A DNA stretch of 64,000 nt from Pelosinus fermentans DSM 17108 (GTDB lineage Bacteria > Bacillota > Negativicutes > DSM-13327). A program made the position numbers and the translations under genes. Below are positions 1,918-17,131 of the stretch, piece by piece; positions within the stretch are counted from its first letter, which is position 1; the number at the start of each line of letters is the position of its first letter. The notes under the pieces were generated by a model. That model had not been told where the DNA came from. It saw only the letters and a list, made by a program, of their open reading frames with translations, and did not search any database. The stretch covers positions 500,001-564,000 of the forward strand of contig NZ_AKVN02000001.1 of the NCBI RefSeq assembly GCF_000271485.2, written 5' to 3'.

Positions 1918-1940
1918 CATAAGTAGAATTTAACAGTTAT

Positions 1941-2071
1941 AAAGAGAAGCTACCATAATAAATTAGTTCGTAAATTTATGGTCAGCTTTTCTTTTATTTG
2001 ATATGAGTGATAGAAACACAATTGAGAACTTATCGATTTTAAATGGGACAAAGAACCTGTCCCCGTGTCCC
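1941..2071. repeat. Element A, partial copy
   Basis: This copy has GAGAAGCTACCATAATAA (left arm of the central hairpin), a decayed right arm, and the right-end motif GGGACAaAGAACCTGTCCCC followed by GTGTCCC. Further copies are at 3729, 5821, 8692 and (partial) 14181. Confidence 0.85.
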
Positions 2072-2977: not shown

Positions 2978-3555
2978 TTTGTTTACAGTTTTAGTTATGC
3001 TGCTAAAATTCTCGGGTATGCCCAACCTACGGTTACTATGCATATTCAATTATTGGAAGAAGAATTCCAGGTAAAGCTTTTTGAACGATTGGGACTTTTC
3101 TGAAGAGGTGAAGTTTGGTTCGATTCAGGAAGAATCGATTGTGGTGGTCATTGCGCCCGATCACCCTTTTTGCAGGTATTCGGCGCTAGGTATTCAAGAT
3201 TTTCAAACCGAGAATTTGATTATAACCCAGGAGAATTGCACGTATCGGGCTATGATTGATGAACTTTTACAGGAAGCGGGGGTTCAGCCTCATTCTCTGA
3301 TTGAAATCAACAATATTCAAGCCATTAAACAATTGGTTATGAGTGGCTTGAGGATTACTGTTTTGCCACGTGTTTCCGTAGAATATGAGCTACGCAAAAT
3401 TTGCTGACAGAAGTGCCGTGGAAAGGACCTCCTTTAAGGGTTTTTACTCAAATAGCTTATTATTGAAAAAATCAAATTGGAATGTTCCAATATATGTTTA
3501 TAAAGGTGAATCAGAAGACGAATTGATTAATAAATTGGAAGAATTGGCAAGATGA
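2978..3555 (+). pseudogene. LysR-family regulator, internally deleted and frameshifted
   Basis: A piece of the winged-helix domain (AAKILGYAQPTVTMHIQLLE...VKLFERLG) is joined directly to the last third of a substrate-binding domain in another frame (EESIVVVIAPDHPF...INNIQAIKQLVMSGLRITVLP). About 90-100 central residues are missing and the start codon region is not recognisable. A further frameshift near 3410 precedes a C-terminal tail ending ELINKLEELAR at 3555. Both halves align with the intact LysR at 45765 (AAQYLGYTQSSVTTHIQLLE; CHIQTIKQMVINNLGITILP). It once probably controlled the divergent iron-sulfur gene. Confidence 0.85.
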
Positions 3556-3662
3556 ATAAAAGATTATGAAAGCGTGTCTTTCTTATTAAAGGACAGTTTT
3601 CACGGATGGAATATCATCTGCTCAGGTGTTGCATTACAATATATGAAACTAGAATATTAAAT

Positions 3663-3740
3663 ATGCAAAAAGTAGCAATAGTCAAGGTAGATAGTTTTGA
3701 TTACATTTACGAAGATGTAGAAAAAGGCGTAAATCAGTAA
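3663..3740 (+). pseudogene. DUF362-type gene, N-terminal scrap 1
   Basis: This 25-codon reading frame starts MQKVAIVKVDSFDY and continues YEDVEKGV, matching my recollection of the start of DUF362 iron-sulfur proteins (VALVKCxSYDYExVxxAVxxGI). It is cut by element A, whose left palindrome supplies the TAA stop. Scraps that look like the next parts of the same protein appear at 4614 and at 5770. Confidence 0.5.
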
Positions 3741-3985
3741 CTACCCATCCATAGGTAGTTACTGATTTACAATTAATAAGAAACCTGAAACAGAGCCTCG
3801 CTTTGGTAAAATAATGCTTATAATGTAAAAATATAGCAGGATTTGGCATTTATAAAAGAGAAGCTACCATAATAAGTTAGTTAGTAATTTATTATGGTAG
3901 CTTCTCTTTTAGTTGACTCTGACGATAGAAACACAATTGAGAACTTATCGATTTAAATGGGACAAGGAACCTGTCCCCGTGTCCC
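3729..3985. repeat. Element A, copy 1 (about 257 bp)
   Basis: The left end is a perfect palindrome with 17-nt arms (GTAAATCAGTAACTACC) and an 8-nt loop. The middle carries a long hairpin, AGAGAAGCTACCATAATAA paired with its complement across a 12-nt loop (about 3856-3910). The right end is GGGACAAGGAACCTGTCCCC followed by GTGTCCC. It contains no ORF, so it is a MITE- or REP-like element mobilised, if at all, by an enzyme coded elsewhere. Confidence 0.9.
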
Positions 3986-4024
3986 ATTTAGGTATAGGAT
4001 TAAATAAATATAAGGAGGAAAAAC

Positions 4025-4420
4025 ATGGGGGAATATGTAGTTGGCATTTTAATTGCCGGAGGAATCTATAATATATTACTGGCTGTTTTTCATATCATGT
4101 TCTGGCGCATGGATAAATTTAACTGGAAAGAAGAATTACCAAAGATGTCCAGTATAAATATGGCAGTCATTCAGTTGTTGAATGTTGCTGTCATCGTATT
4201 CTTCTTTTTAATCTCATATATCAGCATTTTTCACACACGGGAACTGTTGAGTAGTGGGCTGGGTAAAACTGTCTTATTAGGTGTATCGTTATTTTGGTTG
4301 ATCAGACTAGGCGGGGAATTTACCTTTAAAAAAGGAACACCAGCTAATCCAGTATTAGTGGTCATTTTGGTAATAGGAGCGTTATTATATTTAATTCCTG
4401 CGTTATCAGTAACGGCATAG
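4025..4420 (+). CDS. Small integral membrane protein, unknown function
   Basis: This 131-residue protein has four predicted membrane helices (about residues 4-26, 45-68, 82-100 and 108-128) with short polar loops, and no family that I recognise. The start is well set by TAAGGAGG 7 nt before ATG. It lies between element A and element B; the last 10 codons plus element B recur at 8954 with the rest of the gene absent, so the locus was once duplicated. Its neighbours suggest that it came in with the repeats. Confidence 0.7.
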   Translation: MGEYVVGILIAGGIYNILLAVFHIMFWRMDKFNWKEELPKMSSINMAVIQLLNVAVIVFFFLISYISIFHTRELLSSGLGKTVLLGVSLFWLIRLGGEFTFKKGTPANPVLVVILVIGALLYLIPALSVTA

Positions 4421-4510
4421 ATAAATATAGGACAGGGGGACGTAGGAAGTGTCCGAATGGAATTGTCTTTTGACTTTCAGTAAGACATACCTACCGTCCC
4501 CTTGTCTTAT
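4390..4510. repeat. Element B, copy 1 (121-bp duplicated segment)
   Basis: This segment covers the 3' end of the membrane-protein gene and a REP-like palindrome (GACAGGGGGACG... with ...CGTCCCCTTGTC). The same 121 bp recurs at 8954-9074 with three mismatches. Confidence 0.9.
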
Positions 4511-4613
4511 GTGAGATTATAGATAATTATGGACCTTATATTGGAAATGAAAATAGTGTGTGTATGAAAAAGAAGTTAATATAATAGTAGCATTGCTTGG
4601 ATGATCTTAAATA

Positions 4614-4703
4614 ATGAATAAAGTTCAGCAGTTAAATAAATTTATAAATCCAGGTGATAAAGTTCTATTAAAGCCCAGTTCTCAAAAAGAACTTAATTTA
4701 TAA
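4614..4703 (+). pseudogene. DUF362-type gene scrap 2
   Basis: A 29-codon frame includes LNKFINPGDKVLLKP, matching the DUF362 segment LEKFVKPGxKVLLKPN that normally follows the first 30 residues. It breaks off right after the KP codons. The 10-mer TATTAAAGCC at this break reappears at the far side of the aminotransferase gene (about 5774), where the frame resumes with ILKPN. Confidence 0.45.
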
Positions 4704-4725
4704 AATTGGAGATAAAAACTAAGTT

Positions 4726-5835
4726 ATGAATAGTGAAGATAGAATATATGATATAGTTGATGCTCGTAAAAAAGACACAGTAGATTTGAGTGTTAACACA
4801 AACCCTTTAGGAATGCCAGAGTCGGCTAAAATAGCTATTATAAGAGGAATGGAACTGTATGCACAGTATCCTGACGAAAAATGCACCATTTTATCTGAAG
4901 AAATTGCACAACATTGTTCAGGTATATCTGCGAAGCAAGTTTTATGCGTCAGTGGTGTGGATGATGCGATCTATCGGATTATATTTGCGCAACATCCAAG
5001 AAAAGCGCTTCTATTGGCTCCTACCTATGAAGACTATGAAAAAGCATTACGTAATGATGGATGTACTGTGATATATCATTTTTTACAAAAAGAGGAAAAG
5101 TATCAAATTACAGAAACGATTTTGGATTCATTAACTAATGAAGTAGACATGTTTTTTTTATGTAATCCGAATAATCCAACAGGACAAGTCATTGGAAGAA
5201 AATTTCTCAGTCGGATATTAGATAAGTGCCAAGAGAATGGAACTATCTTGGTTGTAGACGAGAGTTTTATTGATTTTTTGGATGAGTCAGAACAATATAC
5301 TGCTAAAGGATTAATTAATACATATCCCAATCTTGTAGTTCTAGACGGATTTACTAAACTATATGCTATGCCGGGCTTGCGGTTAGGATTTTGCATATCT
5401 AGTAATGAAGAATTATTAGGAAAAATATTTGCAGCAGGACAACCTTGGGGTGTGTCTATTCCAGCACAAATAGCTGGGATTACGGCATTAAAAGATAGAA
5501 AATATTTAAAGGAAACTCATGAATTAATCCAGACAGAAAAAAAGTGGTTGCTTAAAGAATTGGGCAATTTGAAAATTGATGTATGGGGTAGTTGCGCCAA
5601 TTATCTCTTTTTTCCAGCACCTTTGCCTAATATGCGACAGCTTTTGGAAGAAGATAATATTCTTTTGCGAAATTGTGAAAATTTTGTTGGGTTAAACGGA
5701 GAATTTTGTCGGGTTGCGATTAGAACGCATCAAGAAAATGAGAAGTTTATTGCTACAATTCGAAAACGTGTTATATTAAAGCCAAACATGGTCGAAGGTG
5801 TCGACAAAGGTATTGGAGGAACTACCCATCCATAG
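4726..5835 (+). CDS. PLP-dependent class I/II aminotransferase (HisC/CobD-like) with foreign C-terminal tail
   Basis: Fold-type I aminotransferase related to histidinol-phosphate aminotransferase and threonine-phosphate decarboxylase. Visible signatures are SVNTNPLGMP near residue 23, CNPNNPTGQV (PLP site), VVDESFIDF, and the lysine region LDGFTKLYAMPGLRLGF, whose K should bind PLP. The true domain ends near residue 348 (NEKFIATIRKR). The last 21 residues (ILKPNMVEGVDKGIGGTTHP) instead look like a DUF362 segment, and the stop comes from element A. The weak GGAG site is about 14 nt from ATG. No partner gene indicates the substrate. Confidence 0.8.
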   Translation: MNSEDRIYDIVDARKKDTVDLSVNTNPLGMPESAKIAIIRGMELYAQYPDEKCTILSEEIAQHCSGISAKQVLCVSGVDDAIYRIIFAQHPRKALLLAPTYEDYEKALRNDGCTVIYHFLQKEEKYQITETILDSLTNEVDMFFLCNPNNPTGQVIGRKFLSRILDKCQENGTILVVDESFIDFLDESEQYTAKGLINTYPNLVVLDGFTKLYAMPGLRLGFCISSNEELLGKIFAAGQPWGVSIPAQIAGITALKDRKYLKETHELIQTEKKWLLKELGNLKIDVWGSCANYLFFPAPLPNMRQLLEEDNILLRNCENFVGLNGEFCRVAIRTHQENEKFIATIRKRVILKPNMVEGVDKGIGGTTHP

Positions 5836-6068
5836 GTAGTCACTAATTTACAACTAATAAGAAACCTGAAACAGAGCCTCGCTTTGGTAAAATAATGCTT
5901 ATAATGTAAAAATATAGAAGGATTTGGCATTTATAAAAGAGAAGCTACCATAATAAATTAGTTAGTAATTTATTATGGTAGCTTCTCTTTTAGTTGACAC
6001 TAAGCGATAGAAAGATAATTAAAAACTGATTGGTATTGAATGGGACAAGGAACCTGTCCCCGTGTCCC
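5821..6068. repeat. Element A, copy 2
   Basis: Nearly identical to copy 1 from AACTACCCATCCATAGG onward, but the left palindrome arm is replaced by the DUF362-like codons for GGTTHP. It has the same central GAGAAGCTACC hairpin and the same GGGACAAGGAACCTGTCCCC right end. Confidence 0.9.
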
Positions 6069-6107
6069 TTTCCCGTGTCCCTTTCCCGTGTCCCTTTCCC
6101 GTGTCCC
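6061..6107. repeat. 13-bp tandem repeat at the end of element A
   Basis: CGTGTCCC occurs four times at exact 13-bp spacing (6061, 6074, 6087, 6100), with TTTCC between copies. It extends the right-end motif of element A copy 2 and suggests slippage or repeated end addition. From 6108 to 6301 I see no gene. Confidence 0.9.
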
Positions 6108-6301
6108 TTCCAATGAGTAAATAAGCAAGTGAAAATCTCTGAAAATACTTTGCTTTTGGATAAGGAAACCTTCGGAAAAATAAAGACGGATTCCTTAAAA
6201 AATCCCAACAAGATATGTGGGCTCTGTCATTTTCAAGAATTTTTGTCAGAGATAACAATAAAATTAAGTGTCGGCCACTATTCATCTTAGATATGTTGGG
6301 A

Positions 6302-6375
6302 TGTCGCAGGGACGGGGTTGTCGACAATGCAACTGGCTTGAAGGTTAGTGTCAGTAACCCCCGTCCCCATGACAC
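6302..6375. repeat. Element C, copy 1 (REP-like palindrome)
   Basis: TGTC...GGGACGGGGTT pairs with AACCCCCGTCCC...GACA across a short loop. A homologous copy lies at 9318-9384. Each copy sits within about 45 bp upstream of a putative defence gene (6399 and 9428). Confidence 0.85.
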
Positions 6376-6398
6376 CTTGATTTAAAGGAGGCTCAAGA

Positions 6399-7586
6399 AT
6401 GGATATTACCGAAGTGGTAAAGACAATAAAAGATAGTTATGAGAATGTTGATGTAAAAGTTGATGACAACAAAATTAAAATAATTAAAAAGGAATGGAAA
6501 AGGGAAGTTGAATTTGAGTTTAATACAGATAATCTTAATGAGACAATAGATGATATAAGCTATTTTCTCTCTTATGTTTACATACCATTTAAAGGATGTC
6601 TAAATAAGAATAAAGTAGAAATTGCTATAACCATATCCAATACTATTTTTCCTATGCAGTTTAGCGGAGAAGAAGTATCTGATGATGAGAAAAAAGAAGA
6701 AAATATATGCTTTGACATTGGTTGTGTAACTAATGATTTTATAAAAATACTGGATTCGAGACATGATTTTAGATGGGCTTCTCCAGATGAGTTTCTTTCC
6801 ACTCTTCAAATATTTAATTTGGATAAAGTAACAAAAAGATCATATGATGAAGAAAACTTCTTTGAAGATGTAGTTTTAAAAGTTGCAAAAGATATTATTT
6901 TTGATTTGTCGACTAGGTATTCTTTAAATCTAAAGCTATATGAGGTGCCTGAAACAGAAGAGATTGATAATGATCCTTTTTATGAAGCAGCAGATATCCT
7001 AAAAACACAGGAACACTTTTCACTTAAAGTTAGTTATGATGAAGATTTGACTAATTATTATTACCGAGCATTGCAGATGGATAATAGTGAATTTAAGTAT
7101 CTCGCGTATTATCAGGTAATGGAATGTATTTTTGATGAGGTATATCTTGAGGAAACCATTTATGATGTTAGACAGATTATTAACTCGAGTGGTTTTTCAA
7201 GTTATAAAAATGATGATGTTATGTCAATTATAAAGGTAGTTGAGCAATATAATAAGAACAAAACCGATCGTGAAAAAATGAAGGTTATACTCGAAAAATA
7301 TTTTAGAGGTAGTACACACGATGAGGCCTACTTTATTGCTAACAAAGAGATTATTGAGTTACTTACCAAAAAAGGTGAAATTCAAAAAAAAGAAGATATA
7401 AAAGACATACAAAAGTTAACAAATGTCATTTATGATTTTAGATGTAAATGTACACATTCAAATCGTAAATTCCCTTTCCGAAAAACTTTTGATAATACAG
7501 ATAATGAACTTGGTATTTATATATCTATAATTAAAAAAATCGCAGAAAGGGTAATTAGCAACTATAATGTAATGTTATTAAAATAA
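6399..7586 (+). CDS. Probable HEPN-domain protein, putative defence ribonuclease
   Basis: This AT-rich 395-residue acidic protein has no full-length family that I recognise. Near the C-terminus FRCKCTHSN gives an R348-x4-H353 motif, the catalytic signature of HEPN ribonucleases, placed in a helical segment before a final helix (IYISIIKKIAERVI). The middle (YYRALQMDNSEFKYLAYYQVMECIF) resembles helical segments before HEPN motifs in abortive-infection proteins. AAAGGAGG precedes the ATG at good spacing. It stands alone between repeats, close to SIR2-HerA and STAND genes. Ribonuclease activity is inference from the motif; an ordinary structural HEPN or a different helical protein remains possible. 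Confidence 0.6.
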   Translation: MDITEVVKTIKDSYENVDVKVDDNKIKIIKKEWKREVEFEFNTDNLNETIDDISYFLSYVYIPFKGCLNKNKVEIAITISNTIFPMQFSGEEVSDDEKKEENICFDIGCVTNDFIKILDSRHDFRWASPDEFLSTLQIFNLDKVTKRSYDEENFFEDVVLKVAKDIIFDLSTRYSLNLKLYEVPETEEIDNDPFYEAADILKTQEHFSLKVSYDEDLTNYYYRALQMDNSEFKYLAYYQVMECIFDEVYLEETIYDVRQIINSSGFSSYKNDDVMSIIKVVEQYNKNKTDREKMKVILEKYFRGSTHDEAYFIANKEIIELLTKKGEIQKKEDIKDIQKLTNVIYDFRCKCTHSNRKFPFRKTFDNTDNELGIYISIIKKIAERVISNYNVMLLK

Positions 7587-8076
7587 ATGTGGTAAAAATA
7601 CAATAGTGTAGGATTAGATTGGATATTCTTGCTAACTTCGCAAGTGTTTTGATAATTGTGAAGTTAGAAAAATCTGGGCCTTACAGACGGCAATGTCAAC
7701 TTTCCAGCTGATAAGGCTCGTGAACAATCGGGTTTTGATGGGATTTGTGAGGTCACGGATCAGTTTTTAGAACTCCAGTCCAACGTCGTTGTAAACTAGG
7801 TTTTAAAGCGTGAAATTCCTAGGGTTATGGGATCTGTTTCTAAATAATTGTAAATACACATAACTGTAGCTTCTAGGGGACGGTTCCTCTGAGTTTGTTG
7901 TGGTGTGAAAAAGGAAGTGCCGAATCAATATATTGTGAATACAAAATTCCTGCAGGAATTTGTTTTTTAAGGATAAATTAATTAGAAATATGAGAATTAT
8001 TTAAAAAAAAGATTATAAGTAGAATGGCAGACAATAAGATAAGAGGTAGAACTGACTCGATGGAACCGTCCCCTTG
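7587..8076. other. Gene-free stretch with gene scrap and REP-like inverted repeat
   Basis: At 7675-7798 one frame reads LTDGNVNFPADKAREQSGFD..., about 40 residues between stops, which looks like a remnant of an unidentified gene. GGGGACGGTTCC (near 7876) and GGAACCGTCCCC (near 8060) form an inverted repeat bounding about 200 bp. Inside it, AAATTCCTGCAGGAATTT followed by GTTTTTT (about 7943-7967) looks like a terminator. Confidence 0.5.
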
Positions 8077-8077
8077 A

Positions 8078-8392
8078 GTTTATCCTATAGAAAAGATATC
8101 ATTTCATAATCCGATTATTGCCTCTGAAAAATTAATGCGATATTTGGGGATTGATATTTTACATGGTATTAGCGAAAAGGATAAAGAATTTATTAAACAA
8201 AGGTTTCTTCGTAGACATATTTATGAACACAATGCAGGAATTGTAGACCAAGAGTATCTTGACAAGTCTCAAGATACTTCTGTTAAGCTTGGTCAAATTG
8301 TAAGAGAAAAGAGTAGTAATGTAACTTCCCTAATTAAATTAGTTAGACAAATTGCAGTTAATTATGATAAGGAATTTCATGCAATTAAATAA
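8078..8392 (+). pseudogene. C-terminal remnant of a HEPN-like protein
   Basis: The frame is open from just after the REP motif to 8392 with no well-placed start; the first ATG is 8135. The recognisable part, RRHIYEHNAGIVDQEYLDKS, carries an R-x4-H motif followed by HNAGIVD, as seen in the C-terminal helices of HEPN-like proteins. The N-terminal part appears to be cut off by the repeat ending at 8076. It is more likely debris of a second HEPN gene than a working 85-residue protein. Confidence 0.45.
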
Positions 8393-8465
8393 GGGATTAA
8401 GAAAAGATCCCTAGACAATTAGGGCGTTTTTATGCTGTTCTGAGCTAGTAAATGTTACAATAAAA

Positions 8466-8488
8466 ATGCCCAGCACTAAGGCTGGGCA
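8466..8488. terminator. Bidirectional-looking hairpin
   Basis: TGCCCAGC and GCTGGGCA are separated by a 6-nt loop. On the minus strand the hairpin is followed by TTTTTATTG. From 8489 to 8691 there is no gene, only another hairpin-forming stretch near 8550 and a short GGGACAGGTCTTTGTCC palindrome near 8629. Confidence 0.6.
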
Positions 8489-8691
8489 AATACTTATTAA
8501 AATGCTCCCATTATAATGAAGGAAACTTTTGATATGTTCTTTAATTACCTCCACACAACAGGTATGTGGGAACATATTGTTGTCTGGTGGTTTATATTTC
8601 TAGTTTAAATATTTATATGTGTAAGACAGGGACAGGTCTTTGTCCTACAAGAGTGCATGTTATTATCCCAACATGTTGGATGCTGTAAAAA

Positions 8692-8951
8692 AGGTATTAC
8701 AGTAACTACCCATCCATAGGTAGTCACTGAGTTACAACTAATAAAAAAACCTGTAACAGAGCTTTGCTTTGGTAAAAAATGTTTATAATGTAGAAATATA
8801 GAAGGATGTGGCATTTATAAAAGAGAAACTACCATAATAAATTAGTTAGTAATTTATTATGGTAGTTTCTCTTTAGTTGACACTGAGCGGTAGAAATATA
8901 ATTACGAGCTGATTGGTATTAAATGGGACAAGGAACCTGTCCCCGTGTCCC
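8692..8951. repeat. Element A, copy 3
   Basis: Same order as copy 1: left palindrome (imperfect here), central hairpin with AGAGAAACTACCATAATAA arms, and right end GGGACAAGGAACCTGTCCCC. The bases just upstream (8661-8719) read as a frameshifted DUF362 scrap, PNMLDAVKK then GITVTTHP. Confidence 0.9.
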
Positions 8952-8953
8952 TC

Positions 8954-9074
8954 TTTAATTCCTGCGTTATCAGTAACGGCATAGATAAATATAGGACAGG
9001 GGGACGGAGGAAGTGTCCGAATGGAATTGTCTTTTGACTTTTAGTAAGACATACCCACCGTCCCCTTGTCTTAT
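8954..9074. repeat. Element B, copy 2, with 3' tail of a lost gene
   Basis: This is a duplicate of 4390-4510 with three mismatches, including the last codons and stop of the membrane-protein gene at 4025. Here the tail is joined directly to element A, so the body of that gene has been deleted. Confidence 0.9.
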
Positions 9075-9120
9075 CGGTTTAAAATATATACGCACACTGT
9101 CCCCCGCGTCTCAATCAATA

Positions 9121-9168
9121 AAAAACCAAGCAATCAAATCATATTCTGGGTTTGATTGCTTGGTTTTT
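9121..9168. terminator. Strong symmetrical terminator hairpin
   Basis: AAAACCAAGCAATCAAA pairs with TTTGATTGCTTGGTTTT across a loop of about 12 nt, with an A-run before and a T-run after, so it can act in either direction. It insulates the defence operon from the repeats on the left. Confidence 0.85.
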
Positions 9169-9317
9169 ATGTTGGTTATTTCTCTTTTTTTATATAATTG
9201 GCTTATGATGAATTTTTTGTAAGTTTTGGTTAATTCAGGGCGAAAAATGCAGGACTCTGGTCCTGTACTGAAGAATTGGTAATATATTCATAGGAAGATC
9301 AAAGAAGTTATTATTTA

Positions 9318-9384
9318 TGTCACAGGGACGGAGTTGTCGACAATGTAACGGCTGGTTAGTGTCAATAACCCCGTCCCCTTGACG
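9318..9384. repeat. Element C, copy 2 (REP-like palindrome)
   Basis: TGTCACAGGGACGG... pairs with ...CCGTCCCCTTGACGC. It is homologous to 6302-6375, and again lies just upstream of a putative defence gene. Confidence 0.85.
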
Positions 9385-9427
9385 CTTAAAGCTTATTGGT
9401 AGCGATAAAACGATTGGGGATGATGGC

Positions 9428-10654
9428 ATGATACAATATGACCCTTATACCGTTGCAGCAGAAATTAGGGAACAGATATCATCTGCTAAACGCCGACTTG
9501 GCTTTCTAACTGGGGCAGGTTCATCCATGGCCGTTGGATTACCTGGAATTATTGATCTGACCAACCAGGTTGAGGAGAAGTTTGATGGCCTACTAAAATC
9601 TCAATTCCAATCTATTAAAGCAAGTATGGGAGGCACGCCTAATGTTGAATATATTCTTAATTGTGTGAGACTTTACTGTGAAGTAATCGGCGATAGCGAG
9701 GAACGTGAAATTGATGGTATCAAAGGCAGGACTGCAATTAAGAATTTAGATACGTCTATTTGTCGTGCGATACACGATATAGTTAAGAGTGGATCAATGG
9801 TTGAAACAAAGCCTCATCAAACCCTCGCTCAGTGGCTACATGCTCTACATAGTATTAGGGAAAAACCCGTTGAGGTATTCACCCTTAACTATGACTTATT
9901 GTTTGAAAAGGCAATGGAAGAAGTGGGTGTACCCTATTTCGACGGTTTCATCGGTTCTGTTGAACCATTTTTTATGCCAGAAGCGGTGGAGGCAGAAGGG
10001 GAGAAGGAAGACGAAAATGTATATCCTCCTAGATCTTGGACTCGCCTTTGGAAACTACATGGGTCTATTGGTTGGCGTACCAGGTGTGGTAATGGGGATG
10101 GAAGAAAAAGAATTACGAGGGTTAGTGGTGGCGAATTGCCTATTGGCGAAGAACTGATGATTTTTCCGTCACGTGATAAATATGCGGATTCACGGAAACT
10201 ACCTTTCCTTACATTGCAGGATAGATTGCGGCGTTTTCTTATGAATGGAGAGGTTCTTATGGTAATCCATGGTTATAGTTTCTCGGACGAACATATCAAT
10301 GAAATATTATTTCAAGGTTTGAGATCGAATCCGCGCTTATCTATTTTATCATTCTACTATGGCAACCTACCGGATAATCTTACTAAATTTGGGCGTAGTT
10401 ATCGAAATTTAACATTGCTTGCTGCTGATAAGGCTTGCATAGGAGGTCTGGTTGGAGAATGGGTTATAAGCCGATCTCCACAAGCAGGCGAAATATGGTC
10501 ATTTTGGGACGAAGAGGCTAAAAGATTCACATTGGGTAACTTTAATTGTTTTGCTGAATATCTAGAGACGTTTATTGGATTTAAGGGTTTACAAAGGTAT
10601 TCTGATAGTTCTTTTCAGCCGACACTGAAGGGAGGTGAACCTAGTGAAGGATGA
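9428..10654 (+). CDS. SIR2-domain protein of a SIR2-HerA defence pair
   Basis: A 408-residue SIR2-like protein. Rossmann-fold NAD site GAGSS is at residues 29-33, TLNYD at 152-156 and KLHGSIGW with the catalytic-type His at 211; a later segment GYSFSDEHINEIL is typical of SIR2 proteins in defence systems. The family binds or hydrolyses NAD+, and SIR2-HerA pairs are known anti-phage modules, so the likely role is NAD+ depletion or nuclease action on infection. It overlaps the HerA gene by 11 bp, meaning tight co-translation. The partner and motif evidence are strong; the activity is inferred from the family. Confidence 0.88.
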   Translation: MIQYDPYTVAAEIREQISSAKRRLGFLTGAGSSMAVGLPGIIDLTNQVEEKFDGLLKSQFQSIKASMGGTPNVEYILNCVRLYCEVIGDSEEREIDGIKGRTAIKNLDTSICRAIHDIVKSGSMVETKPHQTLAQWLHALHSIREKPVEVFTLNYDLLFEKAMEEVGVPYFDGFIGSVEPFFMPEAVEAEGEKEDENVYPPRSWTRLWKLHGSIGWRTRCGNGDGRKRITRVSGGELPIGEELMIFPSRDKYADSRKLPFLTLQDRLRRFLMNGEVLMVIHGYSFSDEHINEILFQGLRSNPRLSILSFYYGNLPDNLTKFGRSYRNLTLLAADKACIGGLVGEWVISRSPQAGEIWSFWDEEAKRFTLGNFNCFAEYLETFIGFKGLQRYSDSSFQPTLKGGEPSEG

Positions 10655-12464
10655 AGTTACTTTTCTAGGGAATGTTCGTCGGGTAGTTGGTGCGAAGGTT
10701 TATATAGAAATTAGTAGTAGCTTACCGTCGGCATCTCCTATTATTAGTGGTCGTACATATAGGGTTGGGCAGGTTGGATCTTTTGTTCGTATTCCGCTCG
10801 GCTTTCTAAATCTTTATGGTATCGTATCTTTGGTTGGAGCATCAGAGATTGCTGAATCTAACGAATTATTACCAGGAGCTAATAATGGGCAGCGTTGGGT
10901 TGAGGTTCAGCTTGTTGGAGAGTCATATGCTAATGCTAAATTTCAGCGCGGTGTCGGCATATTCCCGACCATTGACGACGAGGCCCATATAGTTACAGAA
11001 GAGGACCTTGCTATAATTTATGGTACTGCCGAAGGAACCATGGTTGAGATTGGGAGTCACGTTGCTTCAGAAGGACTAAAAGCCTTTATTGATCTTGATA
11101 AACTTGTTAGCCGCCATGGGGCGGTAGTTGGGTCTACTGGGTGTGGGAAATCAAATACTGTTGCGGCGCTATTAAGAGCATTGACCAAAGGGGAATATCC
11201 TAACGCTCGAATTATAGTGATCGATCCGCATGGAGAATATCATGCTGCATTTCCAGAAAAAAGTTGTGTCTTTCGCATTAATGATATTCTTTCACCTCTG
11301 GTTATTCCCTATTGGGCACTGTCGTTCGATGAATTAGCATGGTTTTTATATGACCGTAGAAGCACTGGGGAGTCTAATCAAGATGCTATCATACGTGAGC
11401 GAATATATGAAGAGAAAAAGTCCGTATGCAGATCTCTGTGCGCTGGCCAAATTCAACCAGAGGAGATTACCGTCGACGCCCCGATACCATTCAAGTTAAA
11501 GGAACTGTTCTTTGACCTTTACGAGAAAGAATACGCGACTTTGAAAGTAAAGGATGACTTTACTACTATTGCCTATAAAGTGGAAAATGGGCAAGAGCTA
11601 AAGGGGAATATTCAAACTCTAGTTCTACCACAATATCAGCCTCCCGGGGCTGGAGCAGCGCCGCCATTTAAGTCTCCACGGCAAGCGGGATTAGGTTCAA
11701 TTCTAAATAAGATCTATGGCAGACTTAAGGATAGGCGATTTAGCTTCCTACTCGATCCTTCTGGATACGATGGACATACTAAGGATTTACATGATTTGGT
11801 TAATGGTTGGCTAAACCATGATAAACCTATCACTATCTTTGATTTTGGTGGAATACCATTTGAGGTAATGGATCTTGTTGTAGGAGTTTTGACTAGAATT
11901 CTATTTGAGGGTTCTTTTTGGGGGCGAGATTTGCCAGGCGTTGGGAAACAACGTCCGATACTGATGGTGTTTGAAGAAGCTCATGCATACCTACCCAGGG
12001 GGACAGACTCCCAATTTGTATCTGGTTATGCTGGTCGCGCTGTTAGACGGATATTTAAGGAGGGTAGAAAGTATGGAATTGGGTCTTTAGTAGTAAGTCA
12101 GAGACCATCAGAACTAGATGACACTATACTTTCTCAATGTGGTACTTTTATTGCGCTACGTTTAGCAAATAGTGAAGACCAAGGTAGAGTGCGGGCGACA
12201 GTTCCTGATTCATTGACAGGTTTAATTGAGATGCTACCTGCCCTCCGAACTGGTGAGGCTATTGTAGTTGGTGAAGCGATGCAGGTTCCTAGCAGAATAA
12301 GACTGCCATTAGTAGAACCAAGGCCGAATAGCAGTGATCCTTTAATATCGGATAGGTGGGCAGAAAATCCTATGACAACACCGGCTTATGGCCTTGCAAT
12401 TACAGGATGGAGGTGCCAACAGATGTTAACAGCGGAAAACCAAGGAGGTGATAATAATGAATAG
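10644..12464 (+). CDS. HerA-type hexameric ATPase/translocase
   Basis: About 606 residues. The N-terminal beta-rich part (roughly 1-100) fits a HAS-barrel. Walker A is GSTGCGKSNT near residue 160, Walker B is ILMVFEEAHAY near 445, and SQRPSELDDTILSQCGT is the conserved sensor region of the VirB4/HerA group. HerA proteins form hexameric rings that move DNA and assemble with a nuclease or SIR2 partner. I prefer GTG at 10644, eight bases after GGAGG, to the upstream in-frame GTG at 10635, which overlaps that site. It is flanked by SIR2 upstream and the KTSC gene downstream, both overlapping. Confidence 0.9.
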   Translation: MKDEVTFLGNVRRVVGAKVYIEISSSLPSASPIISGRTYRVGQVGSFVRIPLGFLNLYGIVSLVGASEIAESNELLPGANNGQRWVEVQLVGESYANAKFQRGVGIFPTIDDEAHIVTEEDLAIIYGTAEGTMVEIGSHVASEGLKAFIDLDKLVSRHGAVVGSTGCGKSNTVAALLRALTKGEYPNARIIVIDPHGEYHAAFPEKSCVFRINDILSPLVIPYWALSFDELAWFLYDRRSTGESNQDAIIRERIYEEKKSVCRSLCAGQIQPEEITVDAPIPFKLKELFFDLYEKEYATLKVKDDFTTIAYKVENGQELKGNIQTLVLPQYQPPGAGAAPPFKSPRQAGLGSILNKIYGRLKDRRFSFLLDPSGYDGHTKDLHDLVNGWLNHDKPITIFDFGGIPFEVMDLVVGVLTRILFEGSFWGRDLPGVGKQRPILMVFEEAHAYLPRGTDSQFVSGYAGRAVRRIFKEGRKYGIGSLVVSQRPSELDDTILSQCGTFIALRLANSEDQGRVRATVPDSLTGLIEMLPALRTGEAIVVGEAMQVPSRIRLPLVEPRPNSSDPLISDRWAENPMTTPAYGLAITGWRCQQMLTAENQGGDNNE

Positions 12465-12672
12465 AATTTCAGTTAGTTCTACTAATATATCTTCTATTGG
12501 GCACTGTGCAGATTCTTCAGTACTAGAGGTGGAATTTCTCAAAGGCGGAATTTACAATTATTACGGCATTTCAGAACAGTTGTATCATGACTTGCTGAAT
12601 GCTGGTTCCAAAGGCCAGTTTCTCAACCAATATATAAAGAACGCAGGATATACGTATACTAAAGTTGGTTAA
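12457..12672 (+). CDS. KTSC-domain small protein, third gene of the SIR2-HerA operon
   Basis: A 71-residue protein that consists of one KTSC domain: SSIGHCADSSVLEVEFLKGGIYNYYGI followed by a short helix and FLNQYIK. This domain also occurs at the C-terminus of some lysyl-tRNA synthetases, and its role as a free protein is not established. ATG 12457 has a very strong AAGGAGGTGAT site and the gene overlaps herA by 8 bp, so it is co-translated. It could be a cofactor or regulator of the SIR2-HerA complex, or a passenger. Confidence is high in the domain and low in the function. Confidence 0.8.
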   Translation: MNRISVSSTNISSIGHCADSSVLEVEFLKGGIYNYYGISEQLYHDLLNAGSKGQFLNQYIKNAGYTYTKVG

Positions 12673-13230
12673 CTAGTTAATCAATTTTAATTGTAAAGTA
12701 GGAGATTTCATTTCATTATTTTTGGGACTTGGTGAATAATTTGAACATAGCCCAGTGAGGGCGATTCAATATTCATCAAGTTCGCTTTGTATAGATAACT
12801 TCTATAATAAGTTGAAGGACCCTGTGATATGATACTTATAATTAATATGAAAATAAATATCACTATGGTGGCATAACGTAAGATATTAGAATAAGGTGTA
12901 TCATTCCTATCCGAAGGACTTAAACGACGCTACCCCCGAAGGAGGAGCATGCAACTTAATTAGTAATTCGTAGCACGTGGTGGGTTTTGAATTGAAGTCT
13001 GGACACCAGAATAGAGTTGATTCTAACAATTTGTGTTGTGGTCTACTTACGTGTCCTTGATTGCTTTCTATATTGCTAGATGGAAGTTGTACATACGATT
13101 CGGTACGGCTCAGTGAACCGAACCCCTGTCTAATATCAATGGAGAAGCTGGTAAGAAACAACTAACCTATCCCCATGTCTTAAACAATTAAACGCCCCTT
13201 CTTAGATCAAGTTTTAGAATCAGTTAGGAG
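12673..13230. other. 558-bp gap without a convincing gene
   Basis: The stretch is GC-richer than its neighbours around 12900-13150 and has hairpins: GCTACCCCC against GGAGGAGC near 12930, and TTCGGT...ACCGAA near 13100. Neither strand has an ORF with a believable ribosome binding site. It could be a decayed gene or a structured RNA; I cannot assign it. Confidence 0.5.
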
Positions 13231-14076
13231 ATGGAGAATATAAAATACATTAAAGATAATTGGAGTGTTATGCTTTTTGGTGGTTCAGCAATATGTTACA
13301 TATTTGGATATATCAAATCCTTAATCTTATTTCGAGCAATTAGTTTGACCGCTATTCCGACGGATATCTATACACCTTTCGATTTATTAGTTTCAGGGCT
13401 TACATTTATAATTAGTGCATTAAGCGTGCCTATTATTATTTGGGGATCTTATCAGTTAACTACTCTAATTATTGATAGTTTTCCATTTTTACGAGATATA
13501 GTAGATAGGTACTTGAAAAGATCTTTCTCTATTGGGTTTGCACTAGCGGCTTTTTTAGTAATTATTGTTGCATCATCTATTCAAATAACTCCAGTCTTGT
13601 TAAACATAGAGTACAAGGTGTATATAGCTTTACTTACAGCAGTTATATTTACGATACTAGCTTTTGGAATATATACCTTCACATCTAATCAACAAAGAGG
13701 GGTTAAGCAATGGCTTGCTTTGGCTTTCTCTACTTTTATTTGGGTGATAACAATGTTTTTTGGACAATTTTATGCAATAAATAATATATCAACAGGCGAG
13801 TCTTTTCAAATGACTCGTTTAGGACAACATCCGGGCATAACTGGATACCTAATCTTAAAAGATAATATAAATGGATCAAAGAGTAGTTATGAAATTCCTG
13901 GAGCGTATAAAGTCTATGGAGTATTACTTGCTAAGAATGAAAAGTTATACTATTTTGCGGCACTACCACATTCGGCTACCGGAAGCAGTTTATATATATT
14001 ACCTGAGAATAGAGTTTATGGTTTTCAGGCTATCATCTCATTCGAACAATTCAAACCACAAAATATACCTAAATGA
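13231..14076 (+). CDS. Membrane protein of unknown function in the defence island
   Basis: A 281-residue protein with about five hydrophobic segments in the first 190 residues (near 13-33, 48-72, 98-120, 126-148 and 160-180). A soluble C-terminal part of about 90 residues follows (GYLILKDNINGS...YILPENRVYGFQAI). I recognise no family. The ATG directly abuts TTAGGAG, an unusually short spacing, so translation may be weak or the true start different. It is monocistronic between SIR2-HerA-KTSC and the STAND gene. A membrane effector role is possible from position only. Confidence 0.6.
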   Translation: MENIKYIKDNWSVMLFGGSAICYIFGYIKSLILFRAISLTAIPTDIYTPFDLLVSGLTFIISALSVPIIIWGSYQLTTLIIDSFPFLRDIVDRYLKRSFSIGFALAAFLVIIVASSIQITPVLLNIEYKVYIALLTAVIFTILAFGIYTFTSNQQRGVKQWLALAFSTFIWVITMFFGQFYAINNISTGESFQMTRLGQHPGITGYLILKDNINGSKSSYEIPGAYKVYGVLLAKNEKLYYFAALPHSATGSSLYILPENRVYGFQAIISFEQFKPQNIPK

Positions 14077-14180
14077 TGAAATCTTAATTTAAGGCGAATC
14101 TGTTTTATAGAACTATCTTTTAATTTAAATAAGACCTAACCACCGTCCTTGCTTATTTGGTGAATTTTAGTAAACTCATG

Positions 14181-14270
14181 GGTAGCTTCTCTTTTGGTTG
14201 ACATACCGATAGAAAGATAATTTAGAACGTATCGTTTTTAATTGGGACAAGGAACCTGTCCCTGTGTCCC
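14181..14270. repeat. Element A, right-end partial copy
   Basis: It begins inside the right arm of the central hairpin (GGTAGCTTCTCTTTTGGTT) and ends with GGGACAAGGAACCTGTCCC then TGTGTCCC. Confidence 0.85.
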
Positions 14271-14343
14271 ATTATAACTTCATCACGCAAAATAGCCCAA
14301 ATGGTCTGAAAGAGTTCATATTGTAAAAAATATATATGGTAAA

Positions 14344-14392
14344 GGAACAGGTTATTTGTCTCATATATAAGTTGAGACAAATAACCTGTTCC
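14344..14392. repeat. REP-like perfect palindrome, 20-bp arms
   Basis: GGAACAGGTTATTTGTCTCA is perfectly repeated in inverse after a 9-nt loop. It shares the GGAACAGGTT...GTC core with the right end of element A but is otherwise different. Confidence 0.9.
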
Positions 14393-14530
14393 ACCGTATC
14401 ATTTGTAATAGCGAAGAATGAGAAATCCTGCCAAAATTTGTTTATTTCGCAGGAGTTTTTTGTTTTTTTAGAGAATAGGAAACACGGTATTCTGTTATTA
14501 TTTGAGTTAAAGAAGTGACAACTTAGTACC

Positions 14531-14566
14531 ATCGATATATTAAACGTTAATATATCGATTTTTTTA
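14531..14566 (+). terminator. Intrinsic terminator
   Basis: ATCGATATATTAA forms a 13-bp stem with its complement over an ACG loop, followed by seven or more T. It lies about 100 bp before the STAND gene and isolates it from upstream transcription. Confidence 0.8.
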
Positions 14567-14670
14567 GCCGAGTATTTTATAATAACTAAAACCCGACTCC
14601 TCTAGTGTCATCCTCCTATTTTTTTGCTATACTCTAACGACGAAATTCAGCGAATAAGAAGGTGTTTAAA

Positions 14671-16983
14671 GTGTTCCATTATGCAAATTTAAATGATGTT
14701 GAATTTGAAAATCTATGTAAAGATATAATGGAAAAACAATTATCAACAAGCTTGAGGCTTTTTGCCAAAGGCAGAGATGGTGGTATTGATTTTACTGATA
14801 GTACAATTACTCATAATATCATTGTGCAAGCCAAGCATTATATTGGAAGTAAGTTTTCAGATTTACGTACTACTTTAAGAAAGGAAATTGATAACGTAAG
14901 AAAATGGAATCCTAATCAATATTATATATGCTGTGGCATGCAACTCACGGATGCAAACATAAAAGAAATTTATGATCTATTTTCGATTTATATGAAAACA
15001 GATAAAAATATTATTACATTAAGGGAAATTGATGAGTTTTTACAAAAACCGGAGAATTCAGATGTCGTAAGAAAGCACTATAAACTATGGTTGTATGCAT
15101 CAAATATTTTAAACGAGATTTACAATCAAAATATTTTTATAGACTGTGAGTCACTTCTCAGTGACATAGATGAAGAAAGTAAGTATTTTGTGCAAACTAA
15201 TATTTATGAACAATGTATTGATCATTTGGACAAAAATGGATTGCTTATGATAACAGGAGGTCCTGGTGTTGGTAAAACAACTACTTCAAAGATGTTGGTT
15301 CTATATTATGCCACCCAGGGATTTAGGGTAAGGTATACAACCAACGGGGATATAACTGATATTAAAAAATCACTATCACACGAAAAAGAATGCAAAGAAA
15401 TAGTATTGCTAGATGATTGTTTAGGGCAACATTACTTTAATATGAAACATACTCAAGAAAATGAATTACTTTCTTTGATTAAGTATGTGAAATTATCAAA
15501 AAATAAGAAGATTATTTTAAATTCAAGAATCACCATCTTCAATGAGGCAAAAGAGCGTTCTAGAGACTTTAATATTTTTTTTCAAGAAAAAAAAATAAGA
15601 AATTATACTATAGATATGGATGATATCTCCCTCATAGAGAAGGCTGAAATCTTTTATAATCATCTCATTTCTAAATGTATTCCAAAAGAGTACTATAATA
15701 ATATAAAGGAAAATAAAAATTATTTAAAAATTGTTCAACATAATAATTACACGCCTCGTATAATTGAACACGTCACTTATGAATCTAATTATTCCAAAGT
15801 CACTCCAGAGCAGTACTTTAACTATATAATTGAAAACCTAATAGAACCCAATAATATATGGAAAAATGAATTCGAAAGACGACTTCAAGATGTAGATAGG
15901 GCTTTTTTATCTACAGTATACTCATTAACTGATACTAACATAGAGTATAAAGTACTAAAAAAATGCTTTGAAAGTCGCTTATATAATATGAAAAATATTG
16001 ACTCTACAATCGATAATTATGAATCAATTTTATATCGATTAAATCAATCTATTATAAATGTTATTGACAATAAAGGAGGAAAACATATTGGAGTAATAAA
16101 TCCTTCTGTGAATGATTATTTAAAGTCGATTTTTTTTCATAATAAGTTAGAATTACAGGAAGTACGTAAATCTATTTGTCATTTCAAACAATTTGAACGA
16201 TGTTATAAAAAGGAAGAATTAGATAACGTATATCTATCATTAATTAATAATCACAAAGTAGAGGGGGTTGATTTCTCAAATGAGAAACAAAAACTATACT
16301 TTATAGTAGCACATATGTGCAAATTCAATATTAAAGACGGTTTTTATCAACAGACCATTTTAAATTATTTATGTGATGCTTATTTTTATTATTCTAATCA
16401 AAAGGATTGGTTATCACATAGAGAAATATTTAGTCTCTTGATTAATGGAGATTTTTACTCATATTATTCTATCAGTAATTTTATTTTGGATGAGGATTAC
16501 GTTTCAAATTTGTTATGGGATTTAGATCTAGAAGAATTAGTTTTTACTGTAAAGCTATTAAATGAATGCTATAAAAAGAATGGTTTAAAAGTTTTATGGT
16601 TTAAGTCTTTATGCAAAGATATGCTTAACGATGCAATCAAAGATCATGTAGAAAACATTGATGCAGCTGAGTACTGCGATAATTATAATATTGGAACATT
16701 GATTGAGCATGATGAAGATGGAAATTTTGATAGACGCGCAATAATCAATAACTTAAGGAGTCGTGTTGCAGAAAATATCGAACAAGAGATTCAAGAACAT
16801 TTGTTAGATTTAGATAGTGATATTTATAGTGACACTATGTTATCGATAACTGATTATGTTAGTACTGATGGAATTGATAACTATATCGACTCCTATTTTG
16901 AGCCAGATTACGATGATGAGCACAGAGAACGTGGTCGTAGCTCCTCAGATGGGATTTCTGAAATAGAAGCCATATTTGAATGA
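14671..16983 (+). CDS. Mrr-like nuclease fused to STAND NTPase (nSTAND3-type), putative antiviral sensor
   Basis: About 770 residues. The N-terminal 60 residues carry a PD-(D/E)xK-type core: GGIDFTD with D near 40 and IIVQAKHY with the Q-A-K near 54, as in Mrr-type restriction endonucleases. Walker A is ITGGPGVGKTT near residue 196, Walker B EIVLLDDC near 248, and a STAND-like winged region follows (YTPRIIEHV). Such fusions are anti-phage STAND proteins in which ATPase oligomerisation turns on DNA cleavage. No TPR-type sensor repeats are evident. The C-terminal 50 residues are strikingly acidic. GTG 14671 fits the AAGAAGG site better than GTG 14662. It ends about 17 bp before an IS21 end, so loss of a longer C-terminus is possible. 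Confidence 0.8.
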   Translation: MFHYANLNDVEFENLCKDIMEKQLSTSLRLFAKGRDGGIDFTDSTITHNIIVQAKHYIGSKFSDLRTTLRKEIDNVRKWNPNQYYICCGMQLTDANIKEIYDLFSIYMKTDKNIITLREIDEFLQKPENSDVVRKHYKLWLYASNILNEIYNQNIFIDCESLLSDIDEESKYFVQTNIYEQCIDHLDKNGLLMITGGPGVGKTTTSKMLVLYYATQGFRVRYTTNGDITDIKKSLSHEKECKEIVLLDDCLGQHYFNMKHTQENELLSLIKYVKLSKNKKIILNSRITIFNEAKERSRDFNIFFQEKKIRNYTIDMDDISLIEKAEIFYNHLISKCIPKEYYNNIKENKNYLKIVQHNNYTPRIIEHVTYESNYSKVTPEQYFNYIIENLIEPNNIWKNEFERRLQDVDRAFLSTVYSLTDTNIEYKVLKKCFESRLYNMKNIDSTIDNYESILYRLNQSIINVIDNKGGKHIGVINPSVNDYLKSIFFHNKLELQEVRKSICHFKQFERCYKKEELDNVYLSLINNHKVEGVDFSNEKQKLYFIVAHMCKFNIKDGFYQQTILNYLCDAYFYYSNQKDWLSHREIFSLLINGDFYSYYSISNFILDEDYVSNLLWDLDLEELVFTVKLLNECYKKNGLKVLWFKSLCKDMLNDAIKDHVENIDAAEYCDNYNIGTLIEHDEDGNFDRRAIINNLRSRVAENIEQEIQEHLLDLDSDIYSDTMLSITDYVSTDGIDNYIDSYFEPDYDDEHRERGRSSSDGISEIEAIFE

Positions 16984-17131
16984 GTATTCTGGACTAAACT
17001 GTACCACCTGTCCGGTCTAACGATACCGCAATTCCGATGGAATGATACCGGCATTCCGCCAGTGAGTACCACCATCCTATAATAGAAATATGCATTTAAT
17101 GATGCAAATTTTATTATGGGAGGTCAGAATA

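What the first reader, a model, noticed from the sequence alone, without database searches (positions are those of the whole stretch)
9428..12672. SIR2-HerA operon with a third, co-translated KTSC gene
SIR2-HerA is a known two-gene anti-phage pair. Here a KTSC protein of 71 residues overlaps herA and has the best ribosome site of the three. A nucleic-acid-related small domain produced at high stoichiometry could be an antitoxin, an adaptor to HerA or an RNA/tRNA sensor. I do not recall this three-part form being described.
Basis: partly seen in the sequence, partly recalled or inferred. Interest (0 to 1): 0.65.

Follow-up and report, generated by a model that had tools for sequence, protein, structure and literature searches.

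The report
SIR2-HerA defence operon with KTSC subunit
A bacterial anti-phage gene pair here carries a third tiny gene, and the comparison shows that this third gene is a regular part of one branch of such systems, corresponding to a domain that other bacteria fuse onto the motor protein.

Summary
The three genes are real: SIR2 (9428-10654), HerA (10644-12464) and a 71-residue KTSC protein (12457-12672), overlapping by 11 and 8 nt. The third gene is no accident. Among fetched loci whose HerA is close to the window's (about 360 bits or more), 27 of 27 have KTSC directly downstream (26) or fused to the HerA C-terminus (1), in the window's phylum, Pseudomonadota, a haloarchaeon and the phylum of a Solirubrobacteraceae genome; 0 of 30 more distant HerA loci (11 with a SIR2 match) do. 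KTSC distances follow HerA distances (Spearman 0.83). The key to function is a solved SIR2/HerA antiphage complex (8wld): its HerA carries a C-terminal KTSC domain. The window gene is most likely the free-standing form of that HerA module. HerA-linked KTSCs are mostly acidic, unlinked ones mostly basic, which speaks against a nucleic-acid sensor; the fusions speak against an antitoxin. I favour a HerA-ring subunit that sets hexamer shape and activity; this step is inferred. I found no description of the three-gene form in the papers I could search; HerA-KTSC coupling with a nuclease instead of SIR2 was mentioned in 2022. New variant of a known kind.

The parts
9428..10654 (+). SIR2 effector gene (408 aa), predicted NADase; catalytic-type Asn154 (FTLNYD) and His211 (KLHGS) present
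   Evidence: PF13289, PADLOC SIR2, best PDB match 8w9l SIR2 9.4e-53, motifs conserved in the aligned set where that part was aligned
10644..12464 (+). HerA hexameric ATPase/translocase gene (606 aa); Walker A GSTGCGKS (K169) and Walker B (E444, E445)
   Evidence: DUF87/HerA_C, PADLOC HerA, best PDB match 8wiv HerA 1.4e-137 over residues 3-594, motifs
12457..12672 (+). KTSC gene (71 aa): free-standing counterpart of the KTSC domain fused to HerA in 8wiv/8wld
   Evidence: PF13619 73 bits; 8wiv residues 630-694 1e-11; model pLDDT 94.6 aligns to 8wld_M Z 12.1, rmsd 1.3, 67 residues, 46% identity
10627..10638 (+). Shine-Dalgarno site of herA (GAAGGGAGGTGA), inside the SIR2 gene
   Evidence: duplex energy -21.2, sequence read
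12442..12452 (+). Shine-Dalgarno site of the KTSC gene (AAGGAGGTGAT), inside herA
   Evidence: duplex energy -18.5, best of 1,404 ATGs in the window, sequence read

Best explanation
This is a SIR2-HerA abortive-infection system of the branch whose HerA works with a KTSC module. In most members seen KTSC is a separate small gene after HerA; in a few it is fused to HerA's C-terminus. The KTSC protein is a HerA subunit: it most likely docks on the C-terminal side of the HerA ring and fixes ring shape and stability, while SIR2 sits on the opposite (HAS) face. On infection, HerA ATPase/DNA engagement remodels the complex and unleashes SIR2, which destroys NAD+. Shown here: gene order, recurrence, correlated divergence, the fold, its presence as a resolved domain in a solved SIR2/HerA complex, catalytic motifs. 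Inferred: physical binding of the free KTSC to HerA, its place on the ring and its ring-shaping role, the position of SIR2, the NADase and anti-phage activity.
For: 27 of 27 close-HerA loci carry KTSC, 26 as a separate gene (start of the KTSC match 11 nt before to 28 nt after the end of the herA stop codon), 1 fused; 0 of 30 more distant loci with a HerA frame of 500 aa or more do. HerA-KTSC tree distances correlate at 0.83, SIR2-HerA 0.77, SIR2-KTSC 0.64; no permutation of 5,000 reached any: KTSC follows HerA at least as closely as SIR2 does. Solved HerA 8wiv has KTSC at residues 630-694, entries 8wld/8woc/8wod/8wof hold both SIR2 and HerA, and the window KTSC model matches several resolved chains of 8wld and 8wiv. 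HerA-linked KTSCs have mean net charge -2.9 (27 sequences), unlinked ones +2.5 (17 sequences: 12 cellular or plasmid, 5 phage), Mann-Whitney 2.9e-7 without correction for relatedness. In DUF4297-HerA a C-terminal hook of HerA docks on the neighbour subunit and strengthens the hexamer (PMC11291478, passages), a precedent for a C-terminal ring staple.
Against: No complex could be modelled and the coordinates of 8wld could not be inspected, so where KTSC sits on the ring is not seen. The model of the fused L002 protein was poor (pLDDT 61.9; KTSC part about 28-55 per block) and is not used. Other solved HerA-type proteins have no KTSC match (only 8wiv, 7x8c, 4rgi match), so the module is not needed for SIR2-HerA action in general. 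Correlated trees also arise from plain co-inheritance in one operon. On a tree with unlinked and phage KTSCs the HerA-linked ones are not one clade; unlinked ones fall among them (short domain, no support values). The window's own KTSC is neutral (charge 0), not acidic.
Confidence: 0.7

Rival explanations
1. KTSC is a nucleic-acid sensor or clamp at the mouth of the HerA ring: it recognises DNA or RNA of the invader and licenses the motor.
For: Published papers call KTSC DNA-binding (PMC9503650, passage) or RNA-binding (PMC7824862, passage). A C-terminal position on a translocase ring is a plausible place to meet DNA. Unlinked KTSCs are mostly basic.
Against: HerA-linked KTSCs are acidic on average, -2.9; 24 of 27 are negative. 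I saw no binding assay in the passages read; the RNA-binding idea rests, as I recall, on the domain's link to lysyl-tRNA synthetase.
Confidence: 0.18
2. KTSC is an antitoxin or brake that keeps SIR2-HerA silent until infection.
For: Small overlapping downstream gene with a strong ribosome site; the effector is potentially lethal.
Against: In 8wld and in L002 KTSC is covalently part of HerA, in 8wld within the assembled complex; SIR2-HerA pairs outside the branch show no KTSC. A fused brake is not strictly excluded.
Confidence: 0.08
3. KTSC is a neighbour carried along in a defence island, without a role in the system.
For: KTSC genes also occur away from HerA in cells, plasmids and phages.
Against: 27 of 27 close-HerA loci have it in the same place and strand, fusions exist in two systems (L002, 8wiv), and distances track HerA.
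Confidence: 0.02

Closest known systems
SIR2/HerA antiphage complex of PDB 8wld, 8woc, 8wod, 8wof (HerA alone 8wiv; recalled as Paenibacillus sp. 453MF, Liao et al. 2024, doi 10.1093/nar/gkae750, not held)
   Same: Best PDB match of both SIR2 (9.4e-53) and HerA (1.4e-137); same KTSC module
   Different: KTSC is the C-terminal domain of one 696-residue HerA chain; here it is a separate gene
SIR2-HerA of PDB 8j4u/8su9 (recalled as E. coli) and of 8yho/8yhx
   Same: SIR2 effector with a HerA-type ATPase
   Different: Distant (HerA 2.5e-35 and 1.1e-23) and without KTSC match
HerA-KTSC-endoDNase systems mentioned by the Aravind group 2022 (PMC9503650, passage)
   Same: HerA-like ATPase coupled with a KTSC gene
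   Different: There an endoDNase stands in lieu of the sirtuin (called unpublished observation); in the 27 close loci seen here KTSC-HerA comes with SIR2
DUF4297-HerA (PMC11291478, passages)
   Same: HerA hexamer plus effector on the HAS face; C-terminal hook of HerA strengthens the ring
   Different: Nuclease effector; no KTSC mentioned in the passages seen

Membership tests
SIR2-HerA defence system | SIR2-like protein with catalytic Asn and His | tested here: met
   PF13289 and PADLOC SIR2; Asn154 and His211 in conserved motifs; that these are the catalytic residues is recalled
SIR2-HerA defence system | HerA ATPase with Walker A and B next to SIR2 in one operon | tested here: met
   11-nt overlap of the two genes
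SIR2-HerA defence system | NAD+ depletion and phage protection | not testable with these tools
   needs an assay
NCBIfam anti-phage SIR2 and HerA equivalogs (NF042942, NF042944) | score above the curated cut-offs | tested here: not met
   79.3 of 500 bits and 297.2 of 850 bits: not these equivalogs, a different branch of the same kind of system
KTSC domain PF13619 | score above the curated cut-off and the KTSC fold | tested here: met
   73 bits, cut-off 25; Z 14.9 to 4rgi, 14.6 to 7x8c, 12.1 to 8wld_M
Branch with a HerA-KTSC module as in 8wld | KTSC follows HerA, fused or as next gene | tested here: met
Branch with a HerA-KTSC module as in 8wld | KTSC physically part of the HerA ring | not testable with these tools
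   shown only by covalent fusion in relatives
HerA-KTSC-endoDNase variant (PMC9503650) | endoDNase in place of sirtuin | tested here: not met
   SIR2 is present
Toxin-antitoxin pair with KTSC as antitoxin | separable inhibitor of the effector | tested here: inconclusive
   fused forms exist, which argues against a separable inhibitor, but inhibition was not tested

The most novel reading that the evidence does not exclude
The free KTSC is a detachable regulatory subunit: HerA rings with and without KTSC have different activity, so its occupancy licenses or tunes SIR2. Phages may exploit this with KTSC mimics: the KTSC of Caulobacter phage Seuss is acidic (-2) and groups beside the window's KTSC and three other HerA-linked ones.
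Probability: 0.15. Interest if true: 0.7.

Novelty: new variant of a known kind. Interest (0 to 1): 0.5.

Why it matters
It gives a setting and a likely job to KTSC, a small domain without an agreed function, and indicates that one branch of a much-studied two-gene defence system is a three-component system. Constructs of that branch cloned as 'two genes' would lack a conserved part. The split form makes the role of the C-terminal module directly testable by leaving out one small gene.

Tried and rejected
HerA tail as a KTSC-specific docking motif: a DP..W....W(R)xQ-like tail precedes KTSC (motif matched in 22 of 24 linked HerAs), but similar tails occur in KTSC-less HerAs too by eye, so it is not specific.

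Ribosome site as a general sign of high KTSC output: strongest of the three in only 6 of 15 plasmid operons.

PADLOC profile PDLC04105 does not separate the branches: its best match in the phylum sample (L018, 761 bits) has no KTSC, nor have L025, L026, L027 and L028 (499, 498, 455 and 449 bits). Similarity to the window HerA does. A further match, G080:C56 (457 bits, one in-frame stop), was not fetched; no KTSC match was listed on that contig.

What the counts leave out. The 27 close loci exclude the window's own copies, repeat fetches of one place, and L055 (same proteins as L054); several of the rest are close kin (L056/L057; L050/L051/L053). The 0-of-30 set is 27 loci of 100-300 bits plus L101-L103 (scanned), all with a HerA frame of 500 aa or more; 11 of the 30 have a SIR2 match in the fetched flank, others have other or unseen neighbours, and L040 shows only 440 nt downstream. 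Left out of it: HerA fragments L041 and L091 (no KTSC), L093 (197 aa, at the end of its stretch, with a 34-bit KTSC next to it, so a likely further member), and L065 (HerA cut by an insertion with phosphonate genes; its 3' part and KTSC lie about 9 kb on). Rows under 100 bits showed no KTSC.

Charge comparison: the unlinked set is what I had at hand: 7 of the 11 unlinked phylum matches (L079-L082 dropped as weak or partial), 5 regions of the 48 plasmid records, and 5 of the 42 phage records.

The AlphaFold model of the fused L002 protein was too poor to use. Below the KTSC and SIR2/HerA entries, structural matches of the KTSC model are weak (Z 3.6 or less).

Viral contigs: the scans with the window HerA and the window KTSC returned no relative. 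Phage records: one distant HerA match, annotated as terminase, and 42 records with a KTSC match. The E. coli plasmid operon L049 is in 1 of 5,426 E. coli genomes. No plasmid DNA match to the window operon itself.

Literature: two held papers contain both KTSC and HerA; of the passages seen only that of PMC9503650 joins them. Other searches. The three structural papers that would matter most are not held, so an earlier mention there is not excluded.
Full report
What is there. Three genes lie head to tail on the + strand: SIR2 (9428-10654, 408 aa), HerA (10644-12464, 606 aa) and KTSC (12457-12672, 71 aa), overlapping by 11 and 8 nt. SIR2 keeps the catalytic-type Asn154 and His211, and HerA keeps Walker A and B. 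The 1-kb windows from 9001 to 12000 have G+C of 0.41-0.43, against 0.28-0.36 from 3001 to 9000 and 13001 to 17000, and HerA has no match in the 7 other genomes of the genus searched. It was probably acquired horizontally.

The ribosome-site claim needs trimming. KTSC has the strongest site of all 1,404 ATG codons of the window (-18.5), but HerA's site is stronger still (-21.2, GTG start); SIR2's is weak (-11.6). In 15 annotated plasmid operons KTSC's site is the strongest of the three in 6, with the best median.

Is the third gene a regular part? I took HerA relatives from genome contigs (16 loci), 398 genomes of the same phylum, 296 genomes of the phylum of the Solirubrobacteraceae locus L002, and plasmids (135 records, 40 listed, 19 fetched). 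All were scored the same way. Loci with HerA at about 360 bits or more: 27 beside the window, all 27 with a SIR2 match upstream (only part of SIR2 in L047) and with KTSC on the same strand directly after HerA, 26 as a separate gene (start of the KTSC match 11 nt before to 28 nt after the end of herA) and 1 fused (L002). The same Solirubrobacteraceae genome has a second operon with the separate form (L087). More distant loci with a HerA frame of 500 aa or more: 0 of 30 with KTSC, 11 of these with a SIR2 match in the fetched flank. Fragments and a naturally interrupted HerA are told under Tried and rejected. The branch spans the window's phylum, alpha-, beta- and gammaproteobacteria, the phylum of L002 and a haloarchaeon (Natrinema, L064).

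KTSC is not common background in the phylum: 17 of 398 genomes have any match, 18 matches in all, and 7 of these 18, the window's included, abut a SIR2-HerA pair. One genome (G210) has two such operons.

Distances on trees of the three proteins (27 operons, window included) correlate: HerA-KTSC 0.83, SIR2-HerA 0.77, SIR2-KTSC 0.64; no permutation of 5,000 reached any of them. Without the distant group and a near-duplicate (22 operons) the values are 0.74, 0.69 and 0.48. KTSC follows HerA at least as closely as SIR2 does; the difference was not tested, and some SIR2 sequences were cut to their matched part. This shows joint inheritance; it does not by itself show contact. On a tree with unlinked and phage KTSCs the HerA-linked ones are not one clade, so the domain may have joined HerA, or left it, more than once, or the short sequence does not resolve it.

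What KTSC is here. Against the PDB, the window KTSC matches only three sequences: two stand-alone KTSC proteins (7x8c, 4rgi) and residues 630-694 of a 696-residue HerA, 8wiv. That HerA is the best PDB match of the window HerA (1.4e-137, residues 3-594 against 9-605), and its partner is the best match of the window SIR2 (9.4e-53); entries 8wld, 8woc, 8wod and 8wof hold both. So the window's HerA ends where the solved HerA continues into KTSC. A model of the window KTSC (pLDDT 94.6, two-row alignment) aligns to 8wld_M with Z 12.1, rmsd 1.3, 67 residues, 46% identity; Foldseek also lists chains D, L, M and N of 8wld and D, L, M and O of 8wiv, two of them over 55 and 62 columns only. The entry title of 8wld is 'Cryo-EM structure of SIR2/HerA antiphage complex'. 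The domain is therefore resolved in the assembled complex, in several HerA chains. A frameshift artefact in this genome is made very unlikely by the 26 other split copies.

Nucleic-acid binding? KTSC has been called DNA-binding (PMC9503650, passage) and RNA-binding (PMC7824862, passage). I compared net charge. HerA-linked KTSCs (27, window included, L055 and L057 left out): mean -2.9, range -7 to +2, 24 of 27 negative. Unlinked KTSCs (12 cellular or plasmid, 5 phage): mean +2.5, range -2 to +8, 15 of 17 positive; Mann-Whitney 2.9e-7, without correction for relatedness. Two of the basic ones come from haloarchaea (L094 +3, L096 +8), whose proteins are usually acidic (recalled). The linked ones thus look like protein-docking modules. 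The window's own KTSC is neutral, so it is not a strong case on its own.

How it most likely works. From solved relatives: in DUF4297-HerA the effector sits on the HAS face of the HerA hexamer, and assembly switches on both enzymes; HerA alone there forms a split spiral, and a C-terminal hook on the neighbouring subunit strengthens the ring (PMC11291478, passages). A review states that no such hook was seen in SIR2-HerA, citing Liao et al. 2024 (PMC12198126, passage). I recall from the abstract of Liao et al. (not held) that a unique C-terminal extension stabilises that HerA; by sequence KTSC is the end of the solved chain. I therefore propose that KTSC is the ring-shaping C-terminal subunit, added in trans here. 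Shown: gene order, recurrence, correlated divergence, fold, presence in a solved complex. Inferred: binding of the free form, ring-shaping, NAD+ depletion and phage defence.

Comparison with what is known. The system is a SIR2-HerA system by its parts, but not the NCBIfam equivalog (far below both cut-offs). [quoted passage not shown] in the 27 close loci seen here KTSC accompanies SIR2. I found no description of the three-gene form, but the main structural papers are not held.

Verdict. A real, recurrent third component of one branch of SIR2-HerA, explained as the unfused form of a domain already present in a solved HerA. Interesting because it gives KTSC a setting and a simple test; not a new kind of system.

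Noticed in passing
window 14662-16983: 773-aa protein with an Mrr-type nuclease domain and an nSTAND3 NTPase, matching PADLOC candidate PDC-S73 at 3e-125: a second defence gene near the operon.
   Followed up: partly
window 1922-2071, 3809-3985, 5890-6069, 8774-8952, 14181-14270: A repeat of about 180 nt with a 57-nt palindrome and a GGGACAAGGAACCTGTCCC tail; 30 of 35 listed matches in the genome (40 of 65 candidates scored) lie within C1:415-515 kb, there in one orientation apart from the palindrome's matches to itself, among transporter, glycosyltransferase and other ordinary genes (10 frames scanned). The operon lies between two copies.
   Followed up: partly
L106 (Caulobacter phage Seuss), 1501-1713: Phage KTSC with net charge -2 that groups beside the window's KTSC and three other HerA-linked ones; the other four phage KTSCs looked at are +1 to +4: possible mimic.
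   Followed up: partly
L096 2289-4213 (Haloarcula sp. plasmid); also hits H52 and H59: KTSC gene overlapping a ThiF-family adenylyltransferase gene, with an E2/UBC-family gene upstream in L096: perhaps another KTSC partnership in haloarchaea.
   Followed up: no
L064 4759-5851 (Natrinema zhouii plasmid): Two ADP-ribosylglycohydrolase-family genes directly after SIR2-HerA-KTSC, the first overlapping KTSC.
   Followed up: no
L099 1318-12213 (Agrobacterium pusense plasmid pB): A HerA of this branch naturally interrupted by an insertion that carries phosphonate transport and dehydrogenase genes; SIR2 lies on one side, the HerA 3' part and KTSC on the other.
   Followed up: no
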